Assembly: GCF_000835495.1 (NCBI RefSeq)
Contig: NW_015622541.1
Location: 868,001 to 932,000, forward strand
Direction of reading: 5' to 3'
From: Cladophialophora immunda
Lineage: Eukaryota > Ascomycota > Eurotiomycetes > Chaetothyriales > Herpotrichiellaceae
Length of the DNA: 64,000 bases
Shown: positions 10,312-28,152 of the stretch, one piece after another
Position numbering within the stretch: position 1 is the first letter of the stretch
Layout: every line of letters starts with the position of its first letter
Translations under genes and position numbers: made by a program
The notes under the pieces: generated by a model
The model's input: the letters and a program-made list of their open reading frames with translations, nothing else
Database searches by the model: none
What the model was told of the DNA's origin: nothing

Positions 10312-12380
10312 CTACTTTTCCACATACCAAGCTAGGTCATTTCCCTGTTGCAACTCATATTCCAAGAATCCGTTGCCCAAGAAACGAAAACGGTTCTTCT
10401 CTCTTGGCTCAATGTCAAAGTCTTCGGCCCGCAGGTCCTGGAGAAGCCGCTTGAACAACAACGCGCTGCCGGCAAAGGTGGCCGTCACGCGCCCGTCGAC
10501 GGTGTTGCTCTTGTACCAGCTCCGACAGGCCCCAGTCCAGGTCAAGGTCTGGTGGATCTGGTCCGAATAGACAATAAAGTCGTCCACAGCGCTCTGCTTG
10601 GGGACGACGGCTTTGATGTCCTCCGAGGCAATCTTCCGGATCCATTTGATCATGTACTCGGCGCTCCATCCCAAACTCTCCATCAGAGAGCCGTGGCCGA
10701 TTAATGCGTTCGGGCCGGTGAACATGAAGTAGTTTGGCATGTCGGCCGACGCGAGTGACAAGTAGGATGAAGGCTCGTCCGCCCATTTGTCGGCGAGATT
10801 CACCGAGTGACGACCAACGACGGGGTACTGAGGACGATAGGAGACGTCGAATCCGGTGGCGCACACGACTGGATTCGCGCGCTGTGTTAGCTCGCCAGGC
10901 CTCTTAGCAGGGGTGCGTCAGGATGTGTCACCCTTACCAACATCCACCTTGTAGGTCTTTCCATCGGCGGTAACGACACTGTCGGCATCAATCCTTGTGA
11001 TGGGACTTTGAGTGAGCTCAACATTGTCGCGCAAGAAGGATTCCAGATAACCTTCGCCCGGGGTGATCCTCCGACAACCCAGCTCCCACTTCGGAATGAG
11101 TAATTCGCAGAGTTCCGGGTCGTTCTGTAATTTGCTCGACATCTGTCCACGGGCAAGATCATAAATCTGCCGATTGAGCTCCGAACCCTTCACAAACTGT
11201 GCTTGTCTGTCAGCGATCAAATTTCCGAGAATATAATCGCCCCCGTGGGTCGACACCATACCATCTTGAAACCGTCGTTGATGCTGTGTATTATCTTCTT
11301 GCGATATTCATGGTGTTTCCCGGGATCGTTCGCAAATTCGTGCTTCTCTTCGGCGGTGTACTCAGGGTTATATGCATGGTCGTTCTTTCCAAGCAGGGAC
11401 GCCGGGTTCATGGTGCTGACCACCCACGTAGGCCCTCGTTGAAAGCTCGTTACCTTCGTGCCCGGTAATTTGGCCAGTTGAGGCAGGATTTGAATTCCCG
11501 ATGACCCGTTCCCGATCACGGCGATTCTCTTGTTGCTGTAGTCGTATTCGTGGTCCCAACTGGCCGAATGGACCTTCTTGCCCGTAAATTGCGACAATCC
11601 AGGAATCGATGGCCAGTTCCAGGTGCTGTAACTCACAAGTCAGCTCATTTCAGAATTTTTCGAAGCATTTGACGACCATTTCCCCGTCGGGGGGAGCAGC
11701 TCACTTCAGGAAGCCTTGCGCTGATATTAAGATGTCCGCATAGTCCTCTATGATATTATTGTTATGCTCGACCATCACCTGCCATTGACCGCGACCTTCT
11801 TGCCAATAGGCGCCAGTGACTCGATGATTGTATTTGACGTCCCGCTCGAGATTCCACTTCTGAGCCGTTTTCTTCATGTATGCCCAGATTTCAGGGCCGG
11901 TTGAGAAGAACCGAGTCCAGCTAGGATTGGGGTCAAATGGGAAAGCCTTCGCCGGTCAGCGTCAAAGCATACAGACATTGAGAAACTCTGAGCACGTACA
12001 TAGATGTGCGACGGAACATCGCAGACAACGCCAGGGTAGGTGTTTACCAGCCAAGTGCCGCCTAGCTCGGACCTGACTTCGTAGATCGTGTGGTCGATCA
12101 CGTCGGCAAGGTCGCTGTGTTGATGCTGGAACTTGTGGGCCAGGGTGAGGCCCGAATAGCCGGCGCCAATCGTGATAACGCGAAGCTTTCTGGGTGTGTA
12201 TGCTGGCAGAGGTTTCAATACTGTGCTCGCGCCTTTCAGACTTTGTATATCGCCGGCATGGGCAGTTGGCTCAGGGAAGGTTTCAGACGTGACACCGACG
12301 CCGTTGTTGGTGCCATTGGGTGTGCTTTTGGTCGCGTAAGTGGCGACGCCGTTGATCTCACTATGGTGAGCCATTGACAT
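10312..12380 (-). CDS. Type I Baeyer-Villiger monooxygenase (FAD/NADPH), cluster gene 1
   Basis: Five exons, all resolved with GT-AG introns, from ATG at 12380 to a stop at 10312. The enzyme family uses FAD and NADPH to insert oxygen next to a ketone, giving an ester or lactone. Motifs in order are an FAD Rossmann site RVITIGAGYSGLTLAHKFQ, the Baeyer-Villiger fingerprint FTGKKVHSASWD (F-x-G-x3-H-x3-W-D), an NADPH Rossmann site IAVIGNGSSGIQILPQLA and, across the fourth intron, VDVVVCATGFD. The C-terminal half has NYFMFTGPNALIGHGSLMES, typical of fungal members. No signal peptide is seen; the ~60-residue Thr/Asn/Ser-rich leader is of unknown use. The gene diverges from a second BVMO at 13020, and one perfect 13-bp palindrome lies between them, ~266 bp upstream of this start. 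Confidence 0.92.
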
Positions 12381-12639: not shown

Positions 12640-12652
12640 TTTTCGGCGAAAA
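12640..12652. promoter_or_regulatory. Cluster palindrome site 1 (13-bp perfect)
   Basis: TTTTCGGCGAAAA is a perfect palindrome around one central base. It sits in the 640-bp region between the two divergent BVMO genes, ~266 bp from one start and ~374 bp from the other, so one site could serve both. It has the same core as nine other intergenic sites in the cluster. Binding by the cluster's Zn2Cys6 protein is inferred. Confidence 0.75.
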
Positions 12653-13019
12653 GAGTTGGCCGATGATGTAGACACGTCCAACCACTTGGCCGTGAAAGAG
12701 AAGGATGATTTGGCATACCAGTGATGACCATGAGATGGGCCCAGCCCAGGTCAAAGACCTCCATCGCCGAATCCCTCTCCGCAAGGTTCAGACTCGACTG
12801 CGCCGCGATGATTCCTCGCCGCGCCGGGGAAGTTTTCATGACCCGATAAATGCTTCTAGCAGATATCGGTCTTGTAAACACAGTTTCGATTCGCGTGTTT
12901 AACGACTCTATCTCCAACTCGTTCCTCAAATCCCCTTCATACAAGGGTTGCGCTTTCGTTCGACAGCAGCACCCACTACGCAGATTGCTCACCGCCACCA
13001 GACCGGATTTTGGCAGGAA

Positions 13020-14980
13020 ATGGGTTCCATAGGGGAGAGCCGTGAGTATGACGCCGTACTTGTCGGTGCCGGCTTCGGAGGCTTTACAATGCTTCCGAAG
13101 CTGCGTAAATTAGGACTTCAAGCCAAGATATTCGAACGAGGGTCGGGCTCTGGAGGTGTCTGGTTCGTGTTTTCCCACCGTGAGAAAAGTGATTGAACTG
13201 TCTGACTAAAAGATTCTGCAGGCATTGGAATCAGTGTAGGTGAAACATTCCTCATGACTGGCAAGAAGCTCATCATTCAGACCCGGGTGCCCGCGTCGAC
13301 AGCGACTCACCGGCCTACCAGTTCTTCGACCGGGAGATTTGGGAGGATTTTACCTTCTCTGAACGTTTCCCGGGATTCCGCGAACTGCAAAAGTACTTTC
13401 AGCATGTGGAGAAAAAATGGGACCTTCGAAAAGATATTGAGTACCACAAAAACGTTACTTATGCGCACTGGGATCCCCATAGTCGACGATGGACGGTTGG
13501 GTGTTCTGACGGAACAACGACGCGATGCAAATGGTTGTTCGCGAATGTGGGCTTTGCGGCTAAGGAGTAAGTGTGTTGAGATCTCATACAACCTTTCTGC
13601 AGCATGACTGAGCGTCGAATAGGTATAAACCGTACCTCAAAGGCTCTGCCGACTTTCAAGGCGAGATGTTCCACACGGCTCATTGGCCACACCACGATGT
13701 CGCTCTCAAAGATAAACGCATCGCCGTCATCGGGACTGGGGCCAGTGGGATTCAGGTGATTCAAGAAGCCGGTAAAGTCTGCAAGCATCTCACGGTGTAT
13801 CAACGCACCCCTAACTTCTGGTGAGTTGCCGCCCATCCGACGTCGGACGCATTCTGAAACGTCCTTAGTCTCCCAATGCAGCAGCGTTGTCTAGATCCTG
13901 TGGAAGAGCAGAGAAAGAAAGATAGTGGCGTCTACGAGGCGGCTTTCAAAGCCTGCGAGAAGACCTCTGCTGGAGTGCCGTACGAAACAAATGGCCGTAA
14001 GACCTTCGATGACACAAGTGAAGAGCGCGAAGCGTACTGGAACCGGCTCATACAAGACGGCGGCTTTAAGTTCTGGGTTGCAGGCTACGCTGACCTGAAC
14101 TTGGACCAAAAGGCCAACGATGCCGCCTACAACTTTTGGCGCCGCATGGTCCTGAAACGCATCAAGGACCCCCAGAAAGCCCGGCTGTTGGCGCCGGAGA
14201 TTCCGCCGCATCCTTTTGGCGCGAAGCGTCCGTCGCTAGAACAGAACTATTTCGAGGTTCTCAGCCAGCCAAATGTCGACATCGTTGACTTGAACGAGCT
14301 CCCTATCCAGGAAATCAACGCGACGGGCATTCGCACCGCCGCGGGCCAAGTCGATGTGGACTTGATTGTTCTCGCAACCGGCTTCGATGGCTTGACAGGT
14401 GGCTTCATGGATATCGATCTCCAAGGCGTTGGGAGGAGGACTCTGAAGCAATACTGGAGTGACGGAGTCAAAACGTCCATGGGGGTAGCCATCCCCGGGT
14501 TCCCCAACCTGTTCTTTCTGTTTGGACCGCAAGCGCCATCAACATTCTCGTAGGCGAACCCTTTTGCACCAGCCTCTCCGGAGCTAACAGTATACCTTCT
14601 CAGAAACGGCCCGTCCTGTATTCAATTTCAGGGCCAGTGGTTCCAGAAATTAGTCCAGAAAATGCTCGCCGAGGGCATAGAAACATTGGAACCCACGGAG
14701 GAAGCAGCAGATAGTTGGGTAGAGAAGATTCGTGAGCGATGGGAGGCAACTCTGCTCCCTCAAGGCAAGATAAGTATCTCTGCTGCTCAAAAGGTGTGTG
14801 TCCTTCACTGACATTTCCCACAGTTGGTGGACCGGTGCGAACATCCCGGGCAAAAAAGTGCAGCCTCTCAGTTGGGCAGGAGGGCTCCCTTCATATATGC
14901 AGATGCTTGATGAGACTTTGGAGAAAGATTACCAGGGCTGGATTGTTGAAAGACAGTCATCCGAGTGCTCTGTGTCGTAA
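13020..14980 (+). CDS. Type I Baeyer-Villiger monooxygenase, cluster gene 2
   Basis: ATG at 13020 starts MGSIGESREYDAVLVGAGFG, an FAD Rossmann motif. Exons read as 13020-13162, a 14-nt micro-exon 13222-13235 (encoding the HWNQ of the family's W-H-W-N-x-Y-P-G), 13281-13566, 13623-13820, 13869-14549, 14604 onward and a last exon from about 14824. The Baeyer-Villiger fingerprint is FQGEMFHTAHWP (F-x-G-x3-H-x3-W-P). The NADPH site is IAVIGTGASGIQVIQEAG, and VDLIVLATGFDGLTGGF follows. The last exon has WWTGANIPGKK, the conserved C-terminal block of phenylacetone/steroid-type BVMOs. The last splice junction does not resolve in frame with a GT-AG intron. The protein is about 540 residues, typical for the family. 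It likely oxidises a cyclic or aryl ketone in the same pathway as gene 1; substrate unknown. Confidence 0.88.
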
Positions 14981-15282
14981 GTGAGGGAACTTGACAGGCG
15001 TAGCGAGGGACTTTTGATGGCTATGGGAAAGGATCCCAGTCTATGGAGGCGATCAAAAGAAAACAGCCTATGTGCCATGAGGTAGTCGAAGGCACAATTC
15101 TTAGCACATGAATTGCTCCAGCAACAATAAGGATGGAGATAAACAGTATACATAGCTGTTCCGCTCTTGCCACTCCATTCTCCTCCCCCAGTCGACTATA
15201 CGCAATGAAGTTATACGTTTTCCACCGTGCTAACATCCTCTTGACTGGCATCGCCGTCAATTGCTCCAGGGTGAATCTGGCC

Positions 15283-15762
15283 TCATTTTTCCGGCCAAGC
15301 AACCAGCGGCCATATCTCTATGATCTTTCCCTCCTTGAACTGAAAGAACACGTGCTCGTAGAACACCACGCGATCTTTCACCAACTTTTCGCTCTGAGAG
15401 TCATAGCTCAGCCTGAATCTTGCTGAGACCATGCCGTCTAGGTCGGTCGAGCAGCCGTCATCCACAACTAACATCTCCAGAACAAGACTAAAATTGTCGA
15501 ATTGGCAAACAATTCCATCAATCATCCTGCCATAATCTTCGCTGGTCATCGGCGGCTGTGCGTTGTAGATGACGCCATCATGAACAAACTCCGGTAATTG
15601 TGTAAATTTGCGCTCGCTCATGCAGGCCGCGTATCTGGAGCAAATTGCGCGAAGATCCATCGAGTTTGGCGAATTAGATGATCGGTAAGATAGGATCTTG
15701 TGCGTCGTGGGAGGAAATGCGGCCTTGATGTCTGAGCAGAGAACGTCAAGCTGGAGAACCAT
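15283..15762 (-). CDS. SnoaL-like / NTF2-fold protein, cluster gene 3
   Basis: Small single-exon protein; ATG at 15762 gives 159 residues, while ATG at 15660 (MDLRAICSRYAACMSERKF) gives ~125, the usual size for a SnoaL-like domain. The alternation of an N-terminal helix (ICSRYAACMSERKFTQLPEF), VHDGVIYNAQPPMTSEDYG and the C-terminal strands VFFQFKEGKIIEIWPLVAWP is typical of the NTF2-like cone fold. Members include polyketide cyclases, limonene-1,2-epoxide-hydrolase-like enzymes, dehydratases and isomerases. Catalytic residues cannot be assigned by eye. In a cluster with two BVMOs it could act as a hydrolase, isomerase or dehydratase on a cyclic intermediate; this is inference. A perfect palindrome lies 80-190 bp upstream, depending on which start is used. 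Confidence 0.75.
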   Translation of the reverse strand: MVLQLDVLCSDIKAAFPPTTHKILSYRSSNSPNSMDLRAICSRYAACMSERKFTQLPEFVHDGVIYNAQPPMTSEDYGRMIDGIVCQFDNFSLVLEMLVVDDGCSTDLDGMVSARFRLSYDSQSEKLVKDRVVFYEHVFFQFKEGKIIEIWPLVAWPEK

Positions 15763-15841
15763 AAACGAGATCAGATTTTATAGCAGCTAGCTTGACCTTC
15801 GCTCCTCGCCCCTGCTTGGACAATGATTCAGTAGAGAGACG

Positions 15842-15852
15842 TTTCGGCGAAA
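15842..15852. promoter_or_regulatory. Cluster palindrome site 2
   Basis: TTTCGGCGAAA, a perfect 11-bp odd palindrome, centred 85 bp upstream of the longer SnoaL-like start (15762) and 187 bp upstream of the shorter one (15660). Confidence 0.75.
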
Positions 15853-16041
15853 AATTAATTACAACATTTCAGAGACGACTGGTGGACGCATGGACGTGAA
15901 CGACGGCTTATCAATCTGCTAAATCCAATATACCAAACACTAGTGAAGCCGCATTGCATTTTTTCCACCTATCATGATGCCATCTCAACGAAGGCCTGCT
16001 TCTTCATTGCTGGCTGACACTCAGGCATGTGCATTTCTTGT

Positions 16042-17642
16042 TTAGGGAAGGTTGAAGTCTACCACTATGCGCCTACATACATCAGCGGCCCATACCAAAT
16101 CGTGGCTCAGTACTTACCCTGCCACTTGTCCATTTTTCAGCCTTTGGACGGCTTCATTGAACTTGCTCATTCCAACCACGACAGGTTCAAGGTGGATCTT
16201 TCCTGCAACACCAACAGTAAACACCGTTGCTTCATCTGTCACCATTGTGAGAGTCTCACCTCGTTTCGCAAAGTCCAGTGTCTCTGCTATATCCTTCCGA
16301 CTGCTTGACAAGGTACCCTTGATTGATTGATTGTTCAAGCAAAGCTGGGTAGGATCTGTATCAATGTGGTATCTACCCTTGGGCGGGAGTCCAACACTGT
16401 TTTTCCAATGAAATTCATATATGCTTCTCCTCAATTGGAAGATGTACGGTGTTTTGACATACCACATAACCACCCCACCGACACGTGAACCAAGGTAGCC
16501 AAGCGAGACCGGATAAGCCTGGACAGCTAGTTTACGTCAGCTTCAATTACGAACAGCCATACCAGTTTCAAGGAACACATACCACTAACAAACACGCCGT
16601 GAGCACCTCCATTGGTGACTTCCAAGACCTTCTTGACCGGGTCTGCCTCGGTCAAAAAGTCAACAAAATCTTCGGCACCAAGGCTGAGCGAGAGCGACCG
16701 GCGACTTTCGCCAGTATCAACCACCACGACTCGTATACCCATGGCACAGGCCAGCTGCACACCCTGGATGCCTGTTCCACCGCCTCCGCCAGGGAAAACG
16801 GCCCAGTCACCCGCTCTAAGTCCGGATTCTTTGAGCGAAGAGTACATGGTACCTGCAGAGCACATCGCAGGCCCTGCCACGTAGTCAGAAACCCCCTGTT
16901 CGTTGTTTTAGCTGGGTGAACATCTGACATCAGTCTGGTCAAGATACCTCGGGGATTAGCTATGTTCACGACATGTTATCAGTGTCTGTTCGTTCAACTT
17001 CTGAGGATTCGCTCTGCAACACACATGGACAAACCCCTCTGGGACAGCACAATACTGCTTGTAAGTTCCTGCGAGGGATTAATACACAGCCTGTCCACGC
17101 AGAGGGCAAGTCTTGAGCGTACCGTCCACTGTCCCGCCTGTATAGACTGCTTGCTGGCAGTACGTCTCTCTTCCCGACTTGCAGTACTCGCATAAAGTGC
17201 ATGTGTTGTGAATAGGACCATATGCCGCTCGCTGGCCGACTTTGCAACTCTTCACGTTTTCACCAATCTTCACAATCACTCCAGCACCTTCGTGGCCTGC
17301 ACAAGAAAGACCCATCTCCGACATCTTTGGGAACGCCCAATCGTTCATCATAAAATGCACATCGGTCAGACACAATCCAGTTACATTAAGCTTGATAAGA
17401 ACCTCCGAAGGCCCTGCGAACATGGCCATCAGCAAGTGGCATCCATGACGGTGTGAGCAGTCCAACCGATGCTGGGCACTGGAACTTTCTCAACCGCCAC
17501 GAAGAAATTTGTCCCTTCGTTTTTCTGTCAGACTCTATAAGTCCAGGTTCGCGTTTTGTTCATAAGGCAACCGTCTACGCACGACAATCGCCGCCCAACC
17601 CTCCTTTGGGATTTCCATGACTGTTTCCTCCTCCTTCGACAT
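16042..17642 (-). CDS. Zinc-dependent alcohol dehydrogenase (MDR family), cluster gene 4
   Basis: Read on the minus strand from MSKEEETVMEIPKEGWAAIV (ATG 17642) to VVDFNLP-stop at 16042. Exons 17642-17579, 17524-17467 and 17413-17123 join with clean GT-AG introns to give GWAAIVVQNEGTNFFVAVEK, then EVLIKLNVTGLCLTDVHFM. The catalytic zinc ligands are the Cys in TGLCLTD and the GHEGAG His. The structural zinc loop is CTLCEYCKSGRETYC. The NAD(P) Rossmann site is VVFPGGGGGTGIQGVQLA-like (AVFPGGGGGTGIQGVQ in the text). The enzyme oxidises an alcohol to an aldehyde or ketone, or the reverse. Between ~17050 and 16880 the path uses a very short exon (CTAATCCCCGAG) and is less certain. It probably supplies or reduces the ketone handled by the BVMOs. 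Confidence 0.9.
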
Positions 17643-17844
17643 CCGCGCTCTACTCGGTCGAAGTCGCGTCTTGTAATCTGGAGAAGTGTGATGGTGGACC
17701 AGATATAAGTGAGTGTGCTGCCTTCCCGTATTGTGAAGAGGCAGCACAAGTCCATAAGCTGAACCATTGGTTTGCACACAGTGGTACAATTATTCCTACC
17801 TTTCCACCAAAACTGACACGATCGAGAGATCCAAGATACTCTTC

Positions 17845-17855
17845 TTTCGCCGAAA
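17845..17855. promoter_or_regulatory. Cluster palindrome site 3
   Basis: TTTCGCCGAAA, perfect 11-bp palindrome, ~208 bp upstream of the alcohol dehydrogenase start at 17642. It is the opposite orientation of the central base compared with sites 1 and 2, which is equivalent on the other strand. Confidence 0.75.
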
Positions 17856-18311
17856 TGGATTGAAAGCTTGCTTTCCTCCGGCCGTCGGGCATTAGGAAAG
17901 TCAACCTTGACGTCACGAGGTCATTGTTACAAGCCACAGTAGATATGCACAGAATGTTTTTTGAGCCGACTTCGCTCGTGCTCGGGAGGACGATTTACGA
18001 CAGTCCTTCGAGAACTCATTGGAGAGCACATCGTGCACGGAACCACTCCTGGAAAATACGTGTGTGCTCGTGAATACGTGATTTGAAACTATCAGATAGT
18101 TGACAGCGCTCTTGTAATAGTTCCACCGTCTACCGAAGCCTATCGATGACTTGGTGTTAAAACGCTGCGTCTGCCGCTAAGCCTGGGCGACGAAATCGGT
18201 GAATGAAGGACCCCCCGGCGCCACTATCGAGATTTATCTTTGCTCTTCGAACCCGCCGTCAGAGGAGCTTTCGTATCACCTAGTTCCATTAGACACCGGG
18301 GAGCAAGTGTC

Positions 18312-20417
18312 TCACGCGGTGTGCACAAGCTCTTGTACATCGTCTGTGTGGAAGCCGAGGGCACGTTTCTTTTCGGCAAACTCACGTTCCATCTTATACG
18401 CCAAGGGACTGTCGCTGGCAAAAAGAACGTCAAGATCCTCCAGGTGACGATTGGCTGTTTCGACATAAAACAACCACACCGGGATGATCTGGATGAAGTT
18501 CATGACGGCGAACATGATGAAAACCCACCACCCCACGGCGCTGATGACATACGGGATGACTTCATTAATGACCGCACCCCAGATGGCGAACGACACCATA
18601 GACAAGGAGACGCCCTTTGCTCGTGTGGCGAGAGGAAAGACCTCTGTGGGATAGACCCAGCTGCCATGTCATGTCAGCGATCAAACCAGTCACTACAAAG
18701 TTGTCGAGGACAGAAATGCAAGGGAATTGGGCGGAGAAGGACCAACCAGCATGTGATCCAGGTACTGCCGAACCCGCAGGTATACAAGAAGACGAATGCC
18801 ACCACCGCGGCACCATAAGCTCTTTTCTTGGACAATTCGGTCTCGGGTGTGTTGATGGCTTCTCTCGCGAGTGGCCCGGCAATGAGCAGAGCAGAGCCCA
18901 TGACCAACAATCCAATCAACATCAGCTTGCGCCTCCCGGCTCGCTCGACGAAGTACATGCCGATTGGGACACTACATGTGTAGGATATGAAGTTGAAGCC
19001 AGCCAGCATGGCAGGTAAGTTACCAGTGACTAAGCGACATCAAGGGGGGGTCAGCCAACTTCTCGGTATCGTCAAAAGTTGACACAAGACAGGATGTTTG
19101 GGTGCTCACATCCGCTGAGGCCGAAGATGATGGGTCCATAGGCTGCAATGGCATCTGGACCACAGAGCTTCTCCATAGCCTGGATACCCATGGCCAGGGC
19201 CACACGACGGCGGGTATGCAGAGCATCCTTTTTCCATATCATGGAAAGAAAGCCATGAGCTGAGGATGTGGCCTCGATGCGGATGGCTTCCCGAATTTCG
19301 GCAAGTTCCTGATCAATCGCCTGCTCTGAAGGTCGAAGGCGACAACGGCGAAGTATCTCTCGAGCCTCCTCAAAGCGACCTGTTTCGGCTAAGTGGCGGG
19401 GTGTCTCTGGAAAGAAATTGGCCGCAAGAAGAATCAATATCAAAAAGACCATTTGGAAGGCTTGTGGAAACCGCCAGGCGAATGGAAGAGACCTAGTCTT
19501 GAGGGCAGCGTATTCCATCCAATAGGTCCTGCCAAATGTCGTCAGTATGGAAGGTCAGAAATGGTTATGTGTAGTGTGTGTGTGTTCAGGTAGTCCAGCT
19601 TACATAGTCGCCCCAGCGACGCACATGGTAAATTGTACCGAAACATATGCGCCCCGTAGGTTGTAGTCTGCGATTTCCGAGGTCCAAATTGGGGCTATCG
19701 TATTGAGATGGCCGCAGCCTATGCCGCTGATGATACGACCACAGACCATCCAGGAGAAGTTCTGGGCTGATGCTAAAAGGCAGGCACCCACGATTCCCCA
19801 GACACATCCCAGTTGTATAGATTTGAGTCGACCAATCTTGTCAGCATAGCTGCCGGCCAGAATTGCACCTATGCAACGCAAAAAACCAACGTCAGCACAC
19901 TTTCTAGATCACGTAACTTGGACCACCTAATTAGATCTTTGGAATTTTCCCCGTTCGCTGGCAAGACGCTTCGGAAAAAAAAGAGACAACAAAGACCTGA
20001 TGTCAGTATTACCTAGCAGAAAGCCCAGAAACCAGAAGCTCACGATGCCTCCGACGCGGGCGGCGTCACGGTCAGTGTCTCCAGCAGAATCCATGTGTTC
20101 CAGATAGTCCGGGTTAATGTTAACCAGACTCATGACAGCAGCGTCGTAGCCAAAGAAAAGCAAGCACGTCCCCGCGAGGCCGAGAATACATGCCACCATG
20201 GGCATGCCCGACAGTTTCAAGCATCTCGACCTTGAGTAGCCTCCCGGAATATATTTCGCCCAGGTGGGTTCGGCTGTGGAAAAGAAAACACGAACGTCAG
20301 TCACCTTTCCAAATCACCAGGCCGAAAGCTCGTGGACAGACCCTGTATGTATTGCTCCGTGACGACCACGTTGGGCTGGACCTCCCAACTCTCGCATTCC
20401 ACCTTGTCGTCGCCCAT
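18312..20417 (-). CDS. MFS sugar-porter-type transporter, cluster gene 5
   Basis: Multi-exon gene on the minus strand. A first exon starts MGDDKVECESWEVQPNVVV (ATG 20417). A 67-nt intron leads to AEPTWAKYIPGGYS and the first TM segment (VACILGLAGTCLLFFGYDAAVMS). Later exons show RCIGAILAGSYADKIGRLKS (loop 2-3 motif of sugar porters), the central PETPRHLAETGRFEEA, and ISYTCSVPIGMYFVERAGRR. The C-terminal AYKMEREFAEKKRALGF tail is typical of fungal hexose/polyol-type porters. Twelve membrane spans are expected, in the plasma membrane. Sugar porters usually import by proton symport, which favours uptake over efflux, but related proteins move non-sugar ligands, so the cargo is open. The palindrome ~281 bp upstream ties it to the cluster. 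Confidence 0.88.
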
Positions 20418-21424
20418 AGCTGTGAGATGAGAAAGATTCTTGGACGTTCAATGAATGAGGCTATAACAGCACGATTAAAGACTGTAAGTGAGACAGGGTA
20501 GGTATACTACTATAGTAGATGGAAAAATGTCATACATCCCACGGGATCTGCCCATAATAAATGTCTAAGAGCCAGAGTGAAGCCCATGGGATTCCTCCAA
20601 CAGAATTCTGGGGTATAGATGCCAAGGGGAGAAGAGATCGCGGGGAAGAAGACTCCTCGCGGAGAAAGTTGCCCAGGGGTTTGGCGGACAACTTTCGCCG
20701 AAAACGGAGCGGACCTGAAAGTAGATTGACCTTGAAGGCCTTTGAGATCTAGAACCCGGCGGCCGTGTGCTGCTGGAGTAATGCGGCAACAAACACAGGC
20801 TGAGGTACGGATAGCCTGGAGATAGGAATAATTGTGGCGGGTTTTGAACCTTGCCTGTCTACTGCATGCTTTGTGGATTCACGGCCGGGTCACAGATATT
20901 CCAGCCTTGGTTTGGTGGGAGACAGCACTCAGCAGATACTACTCGAGCCCATTTCCGGCGAAATCTGTATCGTCATCAACTGACGACGCTAGTGATTGTG
21001 AGATAATGAGTATCGGCTCCTGGGAAAGCGTGGGAGACTTGTATTCAAGACAACGCCTTTTCAGAGGCTACACTGGATGCTAGATGGATATCGTTGGCAG
21101 GAAGACTACCCTCGACTCGAATACTGTGGGGAGGGTTTGTTCTTTCACAGCTCTGTGCAGAGCCAAAGACCAGCTCGATAACGTTATTGCGGATTTGGAA
21201 GATTGTCAATGTTGTCACCGAAGTCACAGTCGATAGCTGAAATACGGACCTATCGTTGGCAACCGCATGAAAATCCGAAACATACGGACATTGGTATGCA
21301 AGTTGTCAAATGTAAGCAGTTGGCATTTATAGTTTGTTATGTAATATTGATTTATTCCTATTGGTGAGGCTTTAGACGTGTATTGTCTGGTTTTAGATGG
21401 TGAGCCTAACTTGGTCTCTCGCGC
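20418..21424. other. ~1-kb intergenic region between MFS and reductase genes
   Basis: Holds palindrome site 4 and one degenerate copy. No credible gene is visible; the short open frames lack family features. Confidence 0.6.
20693..20703. promoter_or_regulatory. Cluster palindrome site 4
   Basis: TTTCGCCGAAA, perfect 11-bp palindrome, ~281 bp upstream of the MFS start at 20417. A degenerate copy with one inserted base (TTTCCGGCGAAA, 20952-20963) lies in the same intergenic region. Confidence 0.75.
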
Positions 21425-22450
21425 TCATGATAGAAACCTTTGTAGCGAGTTCACGGTATCCGTGACGGTGTCGGGCAATTTCTTCCATGTGATGCCCAAG
21501 ATCTTTGCAGCCTTGCTACTGTCGACCTTGTACAACCCAGTCTCTGGATACCCACCACCAGGGCTATTTTCTGCAGGTAGCTGATCCCGCAGTCGAGGAT
21601 GTTGCTTCCTGATAATATCCACAAGCTCCTTGTTGCAGAAGTAGCCAGCGGCGACCAGGAAGCGTTGATTTGCAGCTTCGGGCTTCTCCAGTGCCAGGAC
21701 GTGGCAGAGGGCGAGGTCACGCACATCCACCCACGTGAAGGTCATGTTGTCCGGGATCTTGTCCTTGTGTTTCCCCTGAATCAGATCACGGATAACTTGG
21801 TTGCTGGTGTTGAGGTTGTCCAGGCTGCTGAGGTGGCTTATCACGGGCCCCAATACTAGCGGTGGGCAAATGGTCGTGAGTGAGAAAAGAGGCGGCTCTT
21901 GCTGCTGCAAGAACTCCCACGCCGCTTTCTCGGCAAAGGTTTTACTTGCTCGGTAGCCATTGGCAATGCTTTCTGACGCTTGTTGCAGAGTGACAGGATT
22001 CCAGTCTTCTTCGGTGTACATGTGCTCTGGCCATGATCCTTTGAAAGGATTCACAACCGAGGCGAAGGAGGAAGTAATGACGACCAGTTTGACAGAGGGC
22101 GCATTCTTGACGATAGATCGCAGAAGACCAGTCGTACCCTTGGTTGCAGGATCTAGAAGATCGCGTTGGACATTTGTGACGTTGAAATGGAACGGACTGG
22201 CCGTGTGAATGACCGCTTCGAATGGGGGAGTGGATATGAGGGCGTCGTCAAAAGCGTCATCTTGGGCAATGTCTTCCACAATCGCAAAATCCAGTCGATC
22301 TGTACCGATGGTTGGGTATGCAGCTCTGATCTTGTCGGCCTTGGCTGTAGAGCGCACAGTCGTAACCACACTGTATCCTCGCTGGATGAGATGGTCCAAT
22401 ACATGAGCCGCGATGAAGCCGGAGCCACCCGTCAGGAGGACACGCGTCAT
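21425..22450 (-). CDS. NAD(P)H-dependent DFR/GRE2-like extended SDR reductase, cluster gene 6
   Basis: Intact single-exon 341-residue protein. The N-terminus MTRVLLTGGSGFIAAHVLDH carries the T-G-x2-G-F-I cofactor motif of extended SDRs, followed by VVTTVRS (basic residue favouring NADPH). The catalytic Tyr and Lys are in YRASKTFAEKAAWEF (Y-x3-K), with the Ser in VVITSSFASV. This is the family of dihydroflavonol reductases, cinnamoyl-CoA reductases and yeast Gre2-type methylglyoxal/ketone reductases, which reduce aldehydes or ketones. The C-terminus has KILGITWKKLPDTVTDTV, a usual family ending. The cytosolic enzyme probably reduces a carbonyl intermediate of the pathway. Palindrome site 5 lies ~268 bp upstream, with a half-match 22 bp further out. 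Confidence 0.92.
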   Translation of the reverse strand: MTRVLLTGGSGFIAAHVLDHLIQRGYSVVTTVRSTAKADKIRAAYPTIGTDRLDFAIVEDIAQDDAFDDALISTPPFEAVIHTASPFHFNVTNVQRDLLDPATKGTTGLLRSIVKNAPSVKLVVITSSFASVVNPFKGSWPEHMYTEEDWNPVTLQQASESIANGYRASKTFAEKAAWEFLQQQEPPLFSLTTICPPLVLGPVISHLSSLDNLNTSNQVIRDLIQGKHKDKIPDNMTFTWVDVRDLALCHVLALEKPEAANQRFLVAAGYFCNKELVDIIRKQHPRLRDQLPAENSPGGGYPETGLYKVDSSKAAKILGITWKKLPDTVTDTVNSLQRFLS

Positions 22451-22713
22451 GGTCGTCTAGGTCCTGTTGATTCTGTGGTTTCCAGATGATCTCCTGTTGT
22501 TATGTACATCTAGAATTCAAGACGTAAGTGGCCTTGCGGATGGAGTCTCAACGCTGGCATAATGATCTCTGATATCAATCGCAGAAATCTCTTATATTCT
22601 AAGCTACAACATCGGCCAGTTTGAGCTATAGCTGTGCTAGTCGCTACATAATCCGGCTGTTAGGCGTGCGCATACCATGTACTGGAGCTCTTGAAGTGCT
22701 TGCTGCTGCACAA

Positions 22714-22722
22714 TTCGGCGAA
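22714..22722. promoter_or_regulatory. Cluster palindrome site 5
   Basis: TTCGGCGAA core palindrome (flanks A and G, so not extended to 11 bp), ~268 bp upstream of the DFR-like start at 22450. A half-site CGGCGAAA at 22736-22743 follows. Confidence 0.65.
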
Positions 22723-23251
22723 GCTCTGACCTTCCCGGCGAAATTGGCTCATTTTATTGACAAAGACTTTGCCTCTGACAATCTCCAGTGGAAGGGACTG
22801 TCGGTTAATATTTAGAACGGACAAAGGCCTTGAGCGCCGTTGGATACGTCTCTTCTATTCTTCTGACTAGGTCTATTGAAAACCGCGATCCTCAACTTTC
22901 GTGAGAGTCCCCTGGGACTTGGGCAAGTGCGTGGAGGAATAGCTAGAAGGCATGGAGCAACGTTCATTTATCATATTTGGAACAAGATCAACATCCCGCG
23001 GGAAGCACTATCCGTCAATTTTGCTGTACTGCTGTCTCGGCAGAAAACATGGCCAATGAGTCGTGTTGTTCAGTGGCATGAATTCCGATCTCAGAACGGC
23101 GGAAGCATTTTCATCTCCGTGTACTTTTTGAACACCGCGTGTATAGATTCGATAGAATTTACAGAGCCATGCCAGCCAAACTTGCGGGCTTTATCCATGC
23201 TAGGATCACTATTAGTATTGCCTTGGTTTCGGCGTTCTATCTGAGGACTTC

Positions 23252-24597
23252 TCACCTCGTCTGCCAGGACCATGTTAGCTCGAGTGCGAACTGTAGGAAA
23301 GCAAAAGTCTTGTCGGGATCCTGTAAAGGCTCGGTGTTGAGTTCGTGTTCTTGCTTCAGCTCAGCCCAGGCTTGTCGAGTTGCTGGCTCCTTTGCCCAAT
23401 CGATGAAGCTAAAGGTTGACCGGAGCTTGCCTCTCGGGCCGTACCTAACGTACAACATCAGTAACAGGGATTTGACGAAAGACCCAAGGTTAACATACCC
23501 TCTCGGAACAAATGGCAGCTCTACCTCGTGGTAGCTGACGTTCTCCTGAGGGGGAAGCCACTTTAAGTCAAACCATGATGCCAGAGTTGGCCATAGTTTG
23601 GAGAAAGTGAACTCGGATCCATCAGTGATATTAAAAGACTCCCCTGCGGTGCCCTCAGTCAACACCAACCATTCGTAAAATGTACCAAGAATGAAGCCTG
23701 AGGATATCGGATGATTGTTGTCCCAAGATACAAAATCACCGGGATATCTCAGTGGCTGCTTTAGCTTTCGCTGAATAGCAGCGTAGACTGCCAGCGGATA
23801 GAAGATGGTCATGTCTGTTCCGGCGACTGCCGCCAGAATCCATTGCGGCATGGTAACATTGTAGCTGACCCCAGGGTGGGTTTTGGCGTATTTCGCCAGT
23901 AAATCTTCTTGGGTATAGTAGAAGTTGGGCTCTAATTCCACCCTGGGAGCCCCTTCGGTCAGAGGGACGTTCACGTGGCCTTGGTGAACGCCGTAGTTCT
24001 TTCCCCCAGTCTGAAGCACGATTCGTCTGGGCTGAACATCCGCTTGGTCCAAGGCGAGAAGGAAGTTCTCAAAAAGCCGCCCTGTATGGAATTCAAATTA
24101 GCACCACCACGACTCATCTGTGTGCCTGGTAGGAGTTCTCTCACCGTTGGTTTCGGCCAAGTGATTTGCATCCCCAAACACCTCCGAGTCGGCACCTCGT
24201 CTTGCAACCTGCACATAACCGAAGTAGAAGATGTAATCACTGAGCAGGTAGAAACGTCAATTTCTCCCCTGTTACGCGAACAGGAACTGGGGCCGCCTTA
24301 CGCCTGGACTTTGTGTTTCCGTAAGGCACTTGCAATTTGTTCAGGCTCCCAGAGCAAATCCACTGCTACATGCTCGATGTTCTTCGCTTCTGTCGTGGGC
24401 GGCCTCCTTGACAGGGCATAGATCTTCTCCCATCGGTCCGGACTGGAGCTTAGCACATCAACCACGGGTTGGCCAGACTGACCGCTTGCGCCGACAACTA
24501 TAGCTCGAAGGTTCTTCCGAGCCGCATCGATGACTGGCAATCCGTGGAAAATGCCGTCTGAGCGTACTTGGTACGTCTTGCCTGTCGCGTGAGACAT
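23252..24597 (-). CDS. PRISE-type enone reductase (progesterone 5-beta-reductase/iridoid synthase-like), cluster gene 7
   Basis: ATG at 24597 starts MSHATGKTYQVRSDGIFHGL. The cofactor site RAIVVGASGQSGQPVVDVL is followed by IYALSRRPP, the atypical SDR start of the PRISE family. A second exon has DYIFYFGYVQV, then LQTGGKNYGVHQGHVNVPLT, whose K-N-Y-G is the family signature with the catalytic Lys and nearby Tyr; FYYTQEDLL is also characteristic. The rest (WILAAVAGTDMTIFYPLAVY, FNITDGSEFTFSKLWPTLAS) matches fungal homologues. Three or four exons end at 23252. Plant relatives reduce activated C=C bonds of enones or iridoid precursors with NADPH, so an enone or unsaturated ketone is the likely substrate class here. 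An upstream ATG at 24744 is disfavoured because it would sit almost on the palindrome. Confidence 0.85.
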
Positions 24598-24753
24598 GAT
24601 ATTTGATAAACCTGGACCAGGAGATTGACTCGCGATTATGCATAACTTCAAAATATAGGATAGGGACAAGAACTCAGACTGGAAAATGATCCGCCAGATG
24701 ATGTCAATGCCGAGTTGACGTTGGCGCCCTTTTTTCTGGGACAACCTTTTGCT

Positions 24754-24764
24754 ATTCGGCGAAT
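24754..24764. promoter_or_regulatory. Cluster palindrome site 6
   Basis: ATTCGGCGAAT, perfect 11-bp palindrome with A/T outer bases, ~162 bp upstream of the PRISE start at 24597. Confidence 0.7.
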
Positions 24765-25118
24765 TTGTTATTATTCAGGAGATGCTCCCGGCTGGTGCTC
24801 AAGACTTGATCCAGTAAAGATCAAGATAATTAATAATCTCTACTTACTTTGAGGGATGCATTCACAATCCAAAGGCAATAAGACAAGAGATCAGACATCG
24901 TATTATTAAGCTCTTCGGCATAGCACGAACTCGGTACAAGCACTTATTGCATGTTCCTGATTAGGACTAGCGCGGACATGGGATCTGCCCACTCCCACGC
25001 CTTGTCCTCGCAGTCCCAGCATCCTTGTACATAGCCCTCCGACTTGGTTGTTTTCATCATATGTGGCCTTATGGTTTGAGGTCCTGATGACCTCTTCGTC
25101 GTCGTTATGAGTACCCCT

Positions 25119-26190
25119 TCAGGCTTCACCAATGTACTTCCACCAATTTGGACTTGGGTTACGAGCAATCCATCCGCCGTCGACGATAAATGCTGTCATC
25201 ATTTAGTGGTCTGCAGATGACTAGAGACATTTAGGATGGGACCCTTACGATGCCCAGTGATATAAGATGCTTCGTCTGAAGCCAAGAACAGAACCAGCTG
25301 AGCCACCTCGTCCGGGTACCCTCCGCGATTCATCGGTATGCTCTCGAACAATTCTTTTCTCAGTTGTTCATTCTTCATCGTCCCTTCCGACATTGGAGTG
25401 TCCATAAACCCGGGGCAGACTGTCACTGCACGAATGCCGTCCCTTGCATGGTCCATGGCAATTGTCCGCGTGAGGTTGATCAACCCGCCTTTTGCGGCGT
25501 TGTAGGAAGAGAGGCCATAATCTCCACCAATGCCAGAAACACTGGCAGTATTCACAATCACTCCTTTTCCCACCTTTTTCATGTGCGGAATGACAGCTTT
25601 GGCAAGATAGAAAGCGCCACAGAGGTTGGTCATGATGACTTTGTTGAAAACGTCAACGTCATGGTCGGCCACGGGGACTATCGGACTCAGCATTGCTGCA
25701 TTGTGGAACAGGACATCGATTTTTTTGAATCTCGTAATGCAGGCATCGACAGCGGCGAAGCAGGACTTTGGGTCTGAATATTGTCTCAGTGTCAGTGTGA
25801 TCGTACGATCCGTGTAAAAGATGGAAGAATTGTGAAGGGTGAATGTGCAGGACGTTGAGACGAATGTTTACCTGAGACGTCGCATTGGTGGAAGTGAGCG
25901 TTCGGACCAAAGCGCTGCAGTGCATTTCGTTCCTTCATGGTTGATCTTCGTTAGCAGTTTGCAACGGACAGCAGTTTGGCGGCGAGCAGAGGTGTCTTGT
26001 CTGTCGGCTCAAGCCTGTGCCAGATTCGAGGGGGATCTTCGACGTCTCGATGTGCCATGGAAACAATTACCTTCAGGTCCGTAACAAAGACCCTGGCGCC
26101 CTCACCCAAGAACCGCTCGCATGTCTGTGCTCCCAGTCCAGAGGTACCCCCGGTGATGAATATTACTGCCTCGTGAAAACGTCTCCCCAT
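25119..26190 (-). CDS. Classical short-chain dehydrogenase/reductase, cluster gene 8
   Basis: Reads from MGRRFHEAVIFITGGTSGLG (ATG 26190; T-G-G-x3-G-L-G cofactor motif) through short exons including ERNALQRFGPNAHFHQCDVS. The main exon has DVLFHNAAMLSPIVPVADHD (N-A-A for the NAG motif), VIVNTASVSGIGGDYGLSSY with catalytic Ser, and SSYNAAKGGLINLTRT with the Y-x3-K pair. CPGFMDTPMSEG follows. The last exon encodes FIVDGGWIARNPSPNWW and ends at TGA 25119. It is a ~280-residue NAD(P)-dependent oxidoreductase of the FabG-like class, interconverting a secondary alcohol and ketone, probably in the cytosol. Site 7 lies ~341 bp upstream. Confidence 0.88.
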
Positions 26191-26526
26191 GGTTTCAGCA
26201 AGCAGCGTCCTATTGCAGTACAAACTAGCTTCCCGAGAGTTTACATCCGAGGTAGCAGAGAGTGTGAATATCTCTTCAACAAACCGTCGATGGCTCGACC
26301 TCTCTTATTCCAGCACAGAGTAGTTTCCAGGATGGTTAACACCAGACTTGAAGTGAAAGTTGCATTCTTCGAGCAAAAGCCACATAAAGTCATGCTTTTA
26401 TGTGGCTCTTGCACATCACCTGTAAGCCACAACGAGTCTTACTCAGGTCCCGAGCCGGGGGATTTGGGAGGGGATGATGGGCCCTGATAGTGACGACCGA
26501 TCTAGGCTCACACATGGTTTGGAAGC

Positions 26527-26535
26527 TTCGGCGAA
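26527..26535. promoter_or_regulatory. Cluster palindrome site 7
   Basis: TTCGGCGAA (flanked C and A), ~341 bp upstream of gene 8 (26190, minus strand) in the divergent region shared with gene 9. Confidence 0.65.
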
Positions 26536-26760
26536 ACAACCATTGCTGGGTAGGTCATCTACATGATTCAGTCGGGGCCAGATGCGATATTCCTTGCTAC
26601 ATCCTCATTTATTCCCCAGATCTTTCAGACCCAATCGGCCATGCTGGAACTCGACGGTAAATATCTCTAGCCAACCAGCGGAGATTTTCCTCTCCGCAAA
26701 ATGCCAAATGCGATTTCGATGTCTTTGGTTCACCCAGCAATGTTGGTGCCTGGCCCAGAC

Positions 26761-26769
26761 TTCGCCGAA
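26761..26769. promoter_or_regulatory. Cluster palindrome site 8
   Basis: TTCGCCGAA (flanked C and A), ~229 bp upstream of gene 9 (26994, plus strand). Sites 7 and 8 are 234 bp apart, so each divergent gene has its own nearer site. Confidence 0.65.
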
Positions 26770-26993
26770 ACAAAATTTCCTTGGGGAGGGTTTTTCGACC
26801 AAGAGACGGAATTATATCTACGATCTTAGGGCTACCTCTGGGAGTAAGACGTGGACGTTTATAGTCCAACAGGTCTCAACGAAGCTGCATGTAGGGGCAG
26901 TCGGGAAGTGTGTCTACATAAAGCAAGGCACTTTGCAACAGAAAGGACGGTCACTATAATAACCACTGCTTCAACTACTTGTCTGTTTCAACA

Positions 26994-27871
26994 ATGGCAC
27001 CGCTTTTGATGACAGGGTAAAGAAGTTACTTTCCACAGAGCAGTCATCTTGTACTAACCAGAACAAAAGGGTCGGCCTCGTCACCGGAGCTGCCTCTGGA
27101 ATTGGGCGAGCATGTGCCAAGATCCTGGTCGAGGAAGGGTGTACGAGGCTCGTGCTCTCGGATTTGACTGGGAGTGGTCTGGAGGAGATCTCGAACGAGC
27201 TCAAGAACACCGAACCTTCCGTGGAGACTGTTCTATTCGTCGGTGACATGAGCAAAGAGGTCGACGTCAACCAGATGGTCGAGGCTGGCGTCGCTAGATT
27301 TGGAGCAATTCACTATTGTATCAATAGTGCGGGCGTGACAAGTAAACCCAGACTACGGACGCACGAACTGGAGACGGAGGCATTCGATCGAGTCATCAAC
27401 ATCAACCTTCGAGGCTTATGGCTTTGCGAAAGAGCGCAGATCCGCCAGTTCCTGAAGCAAGCGCCAGCGCTGAAAACTCGCAATCATGCCGAGGGAATAG
27501 CGACCCAGCGAGGAACTATTGTCAACATCAGCAGCATTTTCGGCATCACAGCACACGCAACTGCTGGGGCTTATCCCGCCTCGAAATCCGGAGTACTAGG
27601 GCTGACAAGGACGGATGCGGTGGCGTATGCACAAGATGGGATCCGAGTCAACGCCATCTGTCCTGGGTTTATCAACACACCGTTGGTGGAAAAGGCAAAA
27701 GCAGCAGGCGCAGACTACAACAAACTCGTCAGCCTGATCCCATTCAGACGAATGGGTACTGCCGAAGAGTTGGCCGAAGCGGCAGTGTGGTTAGCAAGTG
27801 AGCGAGCAAGTTATGTGAGCGGTGTTGAGTTACCGGTGGATGGTGCTTGGGTCAGAGCGTGCAACACATGA
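26994..27871 (+). CDS. Classical short-chain dehydrogenase/reductase, cluster gene 9
   Basis: A short first exon (ATG 26994, MAPLLMTG) joins across an intron ending near AACAAAAG to VGLVTGAASGIGRACAKILV, a classic T-G-x3-G-I-G cofactor site. LVLSDLTGSG places an acidic Asp at the end of strand 2, which favours NAD(H). The catalytic block has IHYCINSAGVTSKP (N-S-A-G), IVNISSIFGITAHATAGAYP with the Ser, and AYPASKSGVLGLTRT with Y-x3-K. The C-terminus RASYVSGVELPVDGAWVRA is normal for the fold. The mature protein is about 265 residues. It is divergent from gene 8 and similar in class but clearly not a recent duplicate. Likely an alcohol/ketone interconversion in the same pathway; direction and substrate are open. 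Confidence 0.88.
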
Positions 27872-28115
27872 GGATTACGACAGTCAGAAGGGTACAAGAA
27901 ACAACAAGTGGCAAGTCACGGTCAGGATCGCCAGCCATAAGGTCACAGATGATGAAAATAACCAAGTCGGAGGCGTACAAGGATGCTGGGACTGCGCGAG
28001 GATGAGCTGCGGGCGCAGGCAGTGCCGATTGAAGCGCTACTTAGTCTTAATCGGGAACATGCAACAAAGTGCTTGTGCCAACAATCATTCTGCATTCATA
28101 CTCGGTTGAGGTACA

Positions 28116-28124
28116 TTCGCCGAA
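28116..28124. promoter_or_regulatory. Cluster palindrome site 9
   Basis: TTCGCCGAA inside ACATTCGCCGAAATGT, whose outer ACAT/ATGT is also nearly symmetric. It is centred 26 bp from site 10, about 775 bp upstream of the Zn2Cys6 gene and downstream of gene 9. Confidence 0.65.
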
Positions 28125-28139
28125 ATGTGTGGCTCAGTC

Positions 28140-28152
28140 ATTTCGGCGAAAT
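28140..28152. promoter_or_regulatory. Cluster palindrome site 10 (13-bp perfect)
   Basis: ATTTCGGCGAAAT, perfect 13-bp palindrome, ~749 bp upstream of the Zn2Cys6 gene start at 28895. Paired with site 9, it suggests autoregulation of the activator. Confidence 0.75.

What the first reader, a model, noticed from the sequence alone, without database searches (positions are those of the whole stretch)
12640..28152. A shared palindrome, TTCGSCGAA, marks every promoter of a ten-gene cluster
Seen directly: ten full copies at 12640, 15842, 17845, 20693, 22714, 24754, 26527, 26761, 28116 and 28140. All are intergenic, and each lies 85-375 bp upstream of a cluster gene, except the pair ~750-775 bp upstream of the regulator. 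Seven extend to 11-13 bp symmetric matches or nearly so. The 9-bp core with either central base is expected ~0.5 times in 64 kb of equal base composition, and I found none outside 12.6-28.2 kb. Six of the ten are perfect palindromes of 11 bp or more. The TCG-N-CGA half-sites do not match any Zn2Cys6 site I know. The simplest reading is a pathway-specific regulon read by the protein at 28895.
Basis: partly seen in the sequence, partly recalled or inferred. Interest (0 to 1): 0.92.

Follow-up and report, generated by a model that had tools for sequence, protein, structure and literature searches.

The report
Promoter palindrome of fungal gene cluster
In a black yeast close to Cladophialophora immunda, every promoter of a ten-gene, probably catabolic cluster carries the same 9-letter DNA palindrome, which is sparse in the rest of the genome and is most likely the switch read by the cluster's own regulator, a protein with an unusually long loop in its DNA-binding zinc cluster.

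Summary
Ten exact TTCGSCGAA lie at 12642-28150, none elsewhere in the window; shuffles expect 0.53. Genome-wide the motif is at background (421 in 42.2 Mb, reversed control 336), about 175-fold below its density in the cluster's intergenic DNA. All 8 gaps holding a promoter carry it; the one gap without a promoter has none. A blind search of spaced palindromes ranks TTCG.CGAA first. The centre is always G/C although A/T centres are commoner genome-wide; the double site upstream of the regulator is unique in the genome.

Best reading: a cluster-centred regulon read by the regulator at 28895. Its zinc cluster has a 17-residue loop (20 and 18 in two relatives; 7-9 in nine in-genome paralogs; AlcR 16). 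'Matches no known site' needs softening: each strand reads TCG(G/C), the opening of published AflR and Pho7 motifs. New is the overlap of both half-sites on one base pair. Binding, expression and site conservation in relatives could not be tested; a few outside sites near other zinc-cluster genes leave extra targets open.

The parts
12642..12650 (.). TTCGGCGAA, shared divergent promoter of genes A and B (15-bp perfect palindrome)
15843..15851 (.). TTCGGCGAA, promoter of gene C
17846..17854 (.). TTCGCCGAA, promoter of gene D
20694..20702 (.). TTCGCCGAA, promoter of gene E
22714..22722 (.). TTCGGCGAA, promoter of gene F
24755..24763 (.). TTCGGCGAA, promoter of gene G
26527..26535 (.). TTCGGCGAA, divergent promoter of genes H and I (nearer H)
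26761..26769 (.). TTCGCCGAA, divergent promoter of genes H and I (nearer I)
28116..28124 (.). TTCGCCGAA, distal half of the double site upstream of regulator J; 17-bp gap to the next copy; only such pair (gap 5-35 bp) in the genome
28142..28150 (.). TTCGGCGAA, proximal half of the double site upstream of regulator J (13-bp perfect palindrome)
10312..12380 (-). gene A: Baeyer-Villiger-type flavin monooxygenase (FMO-like), 600 aa, 5 exons
   Evidence: 98% to CLAIMM_03444 of C. immunda
13020..14980 (+). gene B: Baeyer-Villiger monooxygenase, about 556 aa (last exon junction uncertain)
15283..15762 (-). gene C: SnoaL-like protein (Pfam hit just under its cut-off, 28.0 v 28.4 bits), 159 aa
16004..17642 (-). 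gene D: zinc-dependent alcohol dehydrogenase (ADH_N, ADH_zinc_N), about 8 exons, 3' end uncertain
18312..20417 (-). gene E: MFS transporter (Sugar_tr), 550 aa
21425..22450 (-). gene F: extended SDR (NAD-dependent epimerase/dehydratase family), 341 aa, single exon
23091..24597 (-). gene G: PRISE-type (progesterone 5-beta-reductase/iridoid-synthase-like) reductase; the model reads through one small intron
25119..26190 (-). gene H: classical SDR; exon borders put together by eye from the frames
26994..27871 (+). gene I: classical SDR, 274 aa
28895..31529 (+). gene J: regulator, long-loop Zn2Cys6 domain plus Fungal_trans (PF04082), 769 aa, 6 exons
28946..29062 (+). zinc cluster of J, C-x2-C-x6-C-x17-C-x2-C-x6-C, preceded by a basic stretch RRRKRK
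14981..15282 (.). convergent gap between B and C: the only cluster gap without a promoter and the only one without the palindrome (internal negative control)

Best explanation
TTCGSCGAA is the operator of a cluster-centred regulon in a black yeast. Ten genes (two Baeyer-Villiger-type monooxygenases, an alcohol dehydrogenase, a PRISE-type reductase, three other short-chain dehydrogenase-type enzymes, a SnoaL-like protein, an MFS transporter and the regulator J) form one unit, probably for breakdown of a cyclic or branched ketone or terpenoid-like compound. J, a zinc-cluster protein, most likely binds each palindrome as a symmetric pair of zinc clusters, each reading TCG(G/C) on its own strand with the central G:C pair shared, and switches on all cluster promoters and, through a unique double site, its own gene. 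Shown by computation: sites, statistics, gene content, architecture, linkage in relatives.
For: 10 exact sites v 0.53 expected in shuffles; genome-wide background density, about 175-fold lower than in the cluster's intergenic DNA. 8 of 8 promoter gaps hit, 1 of 1 non-promoter gap empty; of all palindromes with half-length 3-5 and spacer 0-12, 11 reach 5 or more of the 8 gaps and TTCG.CGAA is the top one. Centre S in 10 of 10 although the genome has 558 W-centred and 421 S-centred copies (P about 2e-4), as expected if each half-site is TCGS. Seven sites facing a single gene show both orientations and dissimilar flanks, as expected for a symmetric operator. The J double site is unique genome-wide (0.13 such pairs expected). 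J is the only one of the ten cluster proteins with a transcription-factor domain. Locus tags place J close to A and/or G in 6 further species, and J and A on C. immunda contigs of the same length.
Against: No binding, expression or deletion data. Sites could not be checked in relatives. The J double site is 749-775 bp from its start codon, far beyond the others. The Zn_clus Pfam model does not reach its cut-off on J (14.5 v 21 bits) and the predicted model of the domain is low confidence (mean pLDDT 59.8; no significant fold match). In E. oligosperma and E. spinifera a 78% J relative is listed but no close A or G relative appears among the listed hits (lists cut at 120 and clustered at 90%), so J may survive without part of the cluster. 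Exclusivity is not proven: 16 of the 17 outside TTTCGSCGAAA sites were examined; several look non-coding, three of the 16 lie in stretches or next to stretches with a J-like zinc-cluster gene, one of them 256 bp upstream of that gene's first zinc-cluster cysteine codon (L028).
Confidence: 0.78

Rival explanations
1. The palindromes are real operators of the cluster, but are read by another factor encoded elsewhere (a zinc-cluster paralog or a stress regulator); J reads a different element.
For: Many J-like factors exist in the genome (65 matched segments). The J sites are unusually far from its start codon. Three of 16 examined outside 11-mer sites lie near other J-like genes, one of them just upstream of such a gene. 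TTC-N3-GAA superficially recalls heat-shock half-sites.
Against: A factor with broad targets should leave the motif enriched elsewhere, but it is at background. In the 20 fetched stretches no relative of genes A-G was found at E 1e-6; only weak SDR (H, I) and J-like matches. The N3 spacing and the fixed CG-S-CG core are not the heat-shock arrangement (recalled).
Confidence: 0.14
2. J is the reader but acts as a monomer in the manner of AlcR, TerR or Pho7; the palindrome is two overlapping TCGS sites of which one monomer occupies either.
For: Long loop and adjacent basic stretch recall AlcR; AlcR and TerR bind as monomers and this was proposed for Pho7 (PMC4360782 and PMC5559640, passages). Two half-sites sharing a base pair leave little room for two domains.
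Against: A monomer would not need both halves, yet 10 of 10 sites keep both perfectly, and TTCG.CGAA outranks the 6-8-mers listed.
Confidence: 0.3
3. J is mainly a repressor held on the palindromes until an inducer arrives.
For: Site positions (85-374 bp upstream for genes A-I) do not distinguish activation from repression.
Against: General knowledge: cluster-embedded Zn2Cys6 proteins with a Fungal_trans domain are mostly activators.
Confidence: 0.12
4. Non-regulatory origin: chance, or copies of a duplicated promoter segment or repeat.
For: None found.
Against: P about 1e-15 or less; flanks of the ten sites do not resemble each other; all ten sit in intergenic DNA and the convergent gap is spared.
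Confidence: 0.01

Closest known systems
AflR regulon (aflatoxin/sterigmatocystin clusters)
   Same: Cluster-embedded zinc-cluster regulator; palindromic site built of TCG(S) and (S)CGA half-sites: TCG(N5)CGA, TCGSWNNSCGR (PMC7344883, passages).
   Different: Half-sites there are separated by N5 between the triplets; here they overlap on a single S. TCG-N5-CGA hits fewer than 5 of 8 promoter gaps here. AflR motif coverage is partial (11 of 17 and 9 of 25 genes, same passages); here 10 of 10 genes.
Pho7 (fission yeast)
   Same: Site begins TCG(G/C) (PMC5559640, passages), exactly what each strand of TTCGSCGAA reads.
   Different: Asymmetric 12-mer without a second half; phosphate regulon, not a gene cluster.
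AlcR (Aspergillus nidulans ethanol regulon)
   Same: Best solved-structure match of the J zinc cluster by sequence (1f4s, E 0.015); long loop between the third and fourth cysteine (16 v 17) and basic residues before the domain (alignment).
   Different: Weak match. AlcR targets TGCGG-type sites (recalled), not TCGS. AlcR full length was not compared.
Pdr1/Pdr3 PDRE TCCGCGGA
   Same: Compact palindrome with the triplets pointing outward (PMC8211738, passage).
   Different: CGG everted with zero spacer; here CGA everted with one shared base pair.
TerR (terrein cluster)
   Same: Cluster regulator whose consensus opens with TCGG and is present in all promoters required for terrein synthesis (PMC4360782, passages).
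   Different: Direct repeat with 5-bp spacer; inverted half-sites not bound (same passages).

Membership tests
Zn2Cys6 binuclear cluster regulators | Six cysteines C-x2-C-x6-C-xn-C-x2-C-x6-C | tested here: met
   J: 2,6,17,2,6; kept in P0005 and P0012, the two orthologs seen with a complete domain
Zn2Cys6 binuclear cluster regulators | Pfam Zn_clus (PF00172) above its curated cut-off | tested here: not met
   14.5 bits v 21 on the N-terminal 90 aa; P0012 14.2, P0005 not listed; short-loop relatives P0017 and P0024 pass with 23.2 and 26.8. The long loop is the likely cause
Zn2Cys6 binuclear cluster regulators | Fungal_trans domain (frequent companion) | tested here: met
   PF04082, 8.7e-31
Zn2Cys6 binuclear cluster regulators | CGG-type inverted or everted repeats in target promoters | tested here: not met
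   No symmetric CGG/CCG pattern with spacer 0-12 hits 5 or more of the 8 promoter gaps; direct repeats were not tested; the shared motif is TCG-S-CGA
Zn2Cys6 binuclear cluster regulators | Sequence-specific DNA binding | not testable with these tools
   needs EMSA or DAP-seq
Pathway-specific gene-cluster regulon | Regulator gene inside the cluster | tested here: met
   gene J
Pathway-specific gene-cluster regulon | One motif in all cluster promoters and not enriched outside | tested here: met
   8 of 8 promoter gaps; genome at background
Pathway-specific gene-cluster regulon | Linkage of regulator and enzymes conserved in relatives | tested here: met
   locus tags and contig lengths agree in E. 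bonariae, C. chaetospira, E. mesophila, C. carrionii, T. pinophilus, T. rugulosus and C. immunda; A-G linkage also in F. monophora and E. aquamarina. Against: J relatives in E. oligosperma and E. spinifera without listed A or G. Only three of ten genes queried
Pathway-specific gene-cluster regulon | Motif conserved in orthologous promoters | not testable with these tools
   no fungal DNA of relatives reachable; two viral-contig scans empty
Pathway-specific gene-cluster regulon | Co-expression dependent on the regulator | not testable with these tools
   no expression data
AflR-type site | TCG(N5)CGA spacing | tested here: not met
   fewer than 5 of 8 promoter gaps
AlcR-type long-loop zinc cluster | Loop of about 16 residues between cysteines 3 and 4 | tested here: met
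   17 in J, 20 in P0005, 18 in P0012 v 7-9 in nine in-genome paralogs
AlcR-type long-loop zinc cluster | Common descent with AlcR rather than independent loop growth | not tested
   the nine relatives outside J's ortholog group in the alignment have short loops, which favours independent growth, but no tree was built

The most novel reading that the evidence does not exclude
A new recognition mode within the zinc-cluster family: a lineage of regulators that enlarged the loop inside its Zn2Cys6 domain and reads a 9-bp palindrome made of two TCG(G/C) half-sites overlapping on one shared G:C pair, so that a single central base pair belongs to both half-sites and must be S.
Probability: 0.35. Interest if true: 0.68.

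Novelty: new variant of a known kind. Interest (0 to 1): 0.55.

Why it matters
Fungal cluster regulators are very numerous and few have a known site (general knowledge). Here the site can be read from sequence alone, with complete promoter coverage and an internal negative control, which makes regulator, site and cluster a ready set for testing and a possible orthogonal promoter system. If the overlapping half-site geometry is right, it tests how close two zinc clusters can sit and whether the loop insert makes this possible. The motif strings gave no paper or three listings on unrelated topics; six locus tags, three seen in hits here and three guessed as neighbours by number, gave none.

Tried and rejected
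Looked at again: L017-L019 (C1:4685001-4715000) hold a zinc-cluster gene, SDR-like frames and two TTTCGSCGAAA 10 kb apart; L028 has a site 256 bp upstream of the first zinc-cluster cysteine codon of a J-like gene; L020 has a J-like gene, but its site lies in a long open frame. These stay open as possible extra targets. Coding versus non-coding of outside sites by codon bias was too weak to settle each. The home-made gene finder over-merged neighbours; cluster genes were remodelled by hand. The first trial of the final H exons was out of frame; H as used was put together by eye from the frames. One more small intron in G was recognised after comparison with relatives and not re-run, so G queries carried 18 extra residues. 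Cross-species promoters through viral contigs: nothing. AlphaFold of the J DNA-binding domain: mean pLDDT 59.8; Foldseek best match Pho7 at E 0.67, so only suggestive. Paper searches that led nowhere: (listings only). The Blasi 2017 toluene paper (PMC5595782; passages only) has no Baeyer-Villiger mention in its main text. Symmetric CGG-type repeats and AflR spacing as the shared motif: rejected.


Full report
WHAT IS THERE. The window is fungal and lies at C1:868001-932000 of a 42.2-Mb genome in 39 contigs. The regulator is 99% identical (96% covered) to a Cladophialophora immunda protein and gene A 98% to CLAIMM_03444 of C. immunda, so the source is that species or a very close relative. Ten exact TTCGSCGAA lie between 12642 and 28150 and none elsewhere in the 64 kb; 100 dinucleotide shuffles gave mean 0.53, maximum 3. 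Six are perfect palindromes of 11-15 bp.

GENES. Hand-curated models with Pfam and solved-structure matches for A, B, G and J give: A, Baeyer-Villiger-type monooxygenase (-); B, Baeyer-Villiger monooxygenase (+); C, SnoaL-like (-); D, zinc alcohol dehydrogenase (-); E, MFS Sugar_tr transporter (-); F, extended SDR (-); G, PRISE-type reductase (-); H, SDR (-); I, SDR (+); J, zinc-cluster/Fungal_trans regulator (+). None of the ten is a polyketide synthase, peptide synthetase or terpene synthase, so breakdown of a ketone- or terpenoid-like compound is more likely than secondary-metabolite synthesis; the substrate is a guess from enzyme classes.

IS IT MORE THAN CHANCE? Genome-wide TTCGSCGAA occurs 421 times, the reversed control 336: about background. 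At the outside rate, 0.15 are expected in the 15.5-kb span and 0.057 in its 5,845 bp of intergenic DNA; 10 are found (P about 1.5e-15 and 9e-20; scan-corrected expectation about 4e-11). TTTCGSCGAAA occurs 22 times, 5 here, reversed control 38; the other 17 are near the ~19 expected from a window-like composition. Of the 50 places that one search lists (C1 up to 3.55 Mb), 10 are this cluster and 40 lie outside; places beyond 3.55 Mb are counted but not listed.

ARCHITECTURE. All 8 gaps holding a promoter (two of them divergent) have at least one site; the only gap without a promoter, between convergent B and C, has none. Enumerating all palindromes with half-length 3-5 and spacer 0-12, 11 patterns reach 5 or more of the 8 gaps; TTCG.CGAA ranks first: 8 of 8 gaps, 10 copies, none in the 42 kb of window used as background. 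No symmetric CGG/CCG pattern and no TCG-N5-CGA pattern is among the 11. Site-to-start distances are 85-374 bp for genes A-I (nearest site), 749 and 775 bp for J. A pair of sites 5-35 bp apart occurs once in the genome, upstream of J (0.13 expected).

CENTRAL BASE. The centre is G or C in 10 of 10, while the genome has 558 A/T-centred and 421 G/C-centred copies; chance of 10 of 10 about 2e-4. This follows if each strand must read TCG(G/C). Seven sites facing a single gene occur in both orientations, as a symmetric operator would.

OUTSIDE SITES. Of the 17 TTTCGSCGAAA outside the cluster, 16 were fetched. No relative of A-G lies in those stretches at E 1e-6, but weak SDR-like and J-like matches do. 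Three of these places are worth telling against a strictly cluster-only reading: L028, where the site is 256 bp upstream of the first zinc-cluster cysteine codon of a J-like gene; L017-L019, where a zinc-cluster gene and SDR-like frames accompany two sites 10 kb apart; and L020, where a J-like gene lies a few kb from a site that itself is in a long open frame. J-like genes are common here (65 matched segments), so this may be chance.

THE REGULATOR. J carries C-x2-C-x6-C-x17-C-x2-C-x6-C with a basic RRRKRK just before it. Pfam Zn_clus misses its cut-off (14.5 v 21 bits), apparently because of the loop: 17 in J, 20 in an E. mesophila ortholog, 18 in a Talaromyces pinophilus ortholog, against 7-9 in nine in-genome paralogs. 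The nearest solved structure by sequence is AlcR (E 0.015), loop 16. The nine relatives in the alignment that lie outside J's ortholog group have short loops, so the long loop was probably gained in J's own group; no tree was built. Several public orthologs (P0001, P0002, P0004, P0009, P0010) start inside the loop, so half of the DNA-binding domain is missing from their annotation. The AlphaFold model is poor (mean pLDDT 59.8) and its Foldseek matches, led by Pho7 (E 0.67), are not significant, although 16 of the 16 listed are zinc-cluster proteins.

CONSERVED LINKAGE. From locus tags and contig lengths of homologs of J, G and A: E. bonariae LTR84_001151/001154/001158; C. chaetospira H2200_004806/004812/004808; E. 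mesophila PV10_08311/08313/08317; C. carrionii G647_08954 (J) and 08955 (A); T. pinophilus TCE0_033r09851 (J) and 09844 (A); T. rugulosus 11850 (J) and 11852 (G); and J and A on C. immunda contigs of the same length. A and G are also linked in F. monophora and E. aquamarina. Against: E. oligosperma and E. spinifera have a J relative (78%), but no close A or G appears in the lists. Only three of the ten genes were queried; the A and G lists were cut at 120 (of 410 and 171), and the database is clustered at 90%, which can hide species.

HOW IT MOST LIKELY WORKS. J binds the palindrome at every cluster promoter, most simply as two zinc clusters each reading TCG(G/C) from its own strand and sharing the central pair, and activates the unit and itself. 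Monomeric binding in the AlcR/TerR manner is the main mechanistic rival; another reader or repression are less likely. None of this is demonstrated by binding or expression.

AGAINST WHAT IS KNOWN. AflR sites (TCG(N5)CGA, TCGSWNNSCGR; PMC7344883, passages), Pho7 sites (TCG(G/C)(A/T)xxTTxAA; PMC5559640, passages), TerR sites (TCGGHHWYHCGGH; PMC4360782, passages) and the Pdr1 element TCCGCGGA (PMC8211738, passage) show that TCGS half-sites and compact palindromes both have precedents. The combination, two TCGS half-sites overlapping on one base pair, was not found: string searches gave no paper or three seen as listings only, on a sensor, archaea and bifidobacteria. The library holds open-licence papers only, so this is weak evidence of absence. 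The C. immunda toluene paper (PMC5595782, passages) has no Baeyer-Villiger mention in its main text, and six locus tags (three seen in hits, three guessed neighbours) found no paper.

VERDICT. It is a new variant of a known kind.

Noticed in passing
window 14790-14980 (gene B): The conserved WWTGANIPGK stretch of this monooxygenase continues in another frame after a 28-nt gap flanked by GT and AG: either an exceptionally short intron, an assembly error or a damaged gene.
   Followed up: partly
window 28895-29062 and proteins P0001, P0002, P0004, P0009, P0010: Public models of several J orthologs start at an internal Met in the zinc-cluster loop, so databases list them without a complete DNA-binding domain (Fungal_trans only).
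   Followed up: partly
L028 (G000:C1:8152501-8162500), 3340-4860: TTTCGCCGAAA lies 256 bp upstream of the first zinc-cluster cysteine codon of a J-like factor gene: a possible second target of the regulator, or chance.
   Followed up: partly
L017-L019 (G000:C1:4685001-4715000): Two TTTCGSCGAAA 10 kb apart in a stretch with a zinc-cluster gene and SDR-like frames; no relatives of cluster genes A-G.
   Followed up: partly
G000:C1:945110-945730, about 13 kb right of the window (L014): A second zinc-cluster/Fungal_trans-like factor (37% over the matched part, short loop) lies near the cluster; no TTCGSCGAA in the 3.6 kb fetched around it.
   Followed up: partly
window 33081-33848: Open frame with a GFA (glutathione-dependent formaldehyde-activating enzyme family) domain right of the cluster, without the palindrome.
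   Followed up: no
G000:C1:3543371-3553156 (L022, L023): Three TTCGSCGAA within 10 kb, the densest other group among the 50 listed places; two look coding, so probably chance.
   Followed up: partly
orthologs P0011, P0012, P0056, P0178 (Talaromyces): J is linked to A in T. pinophilus and to G in T. rugulosus, outside the black yeasts that hold most of the close relatives; transfer or ancient retention not examined.
   Followed up: no
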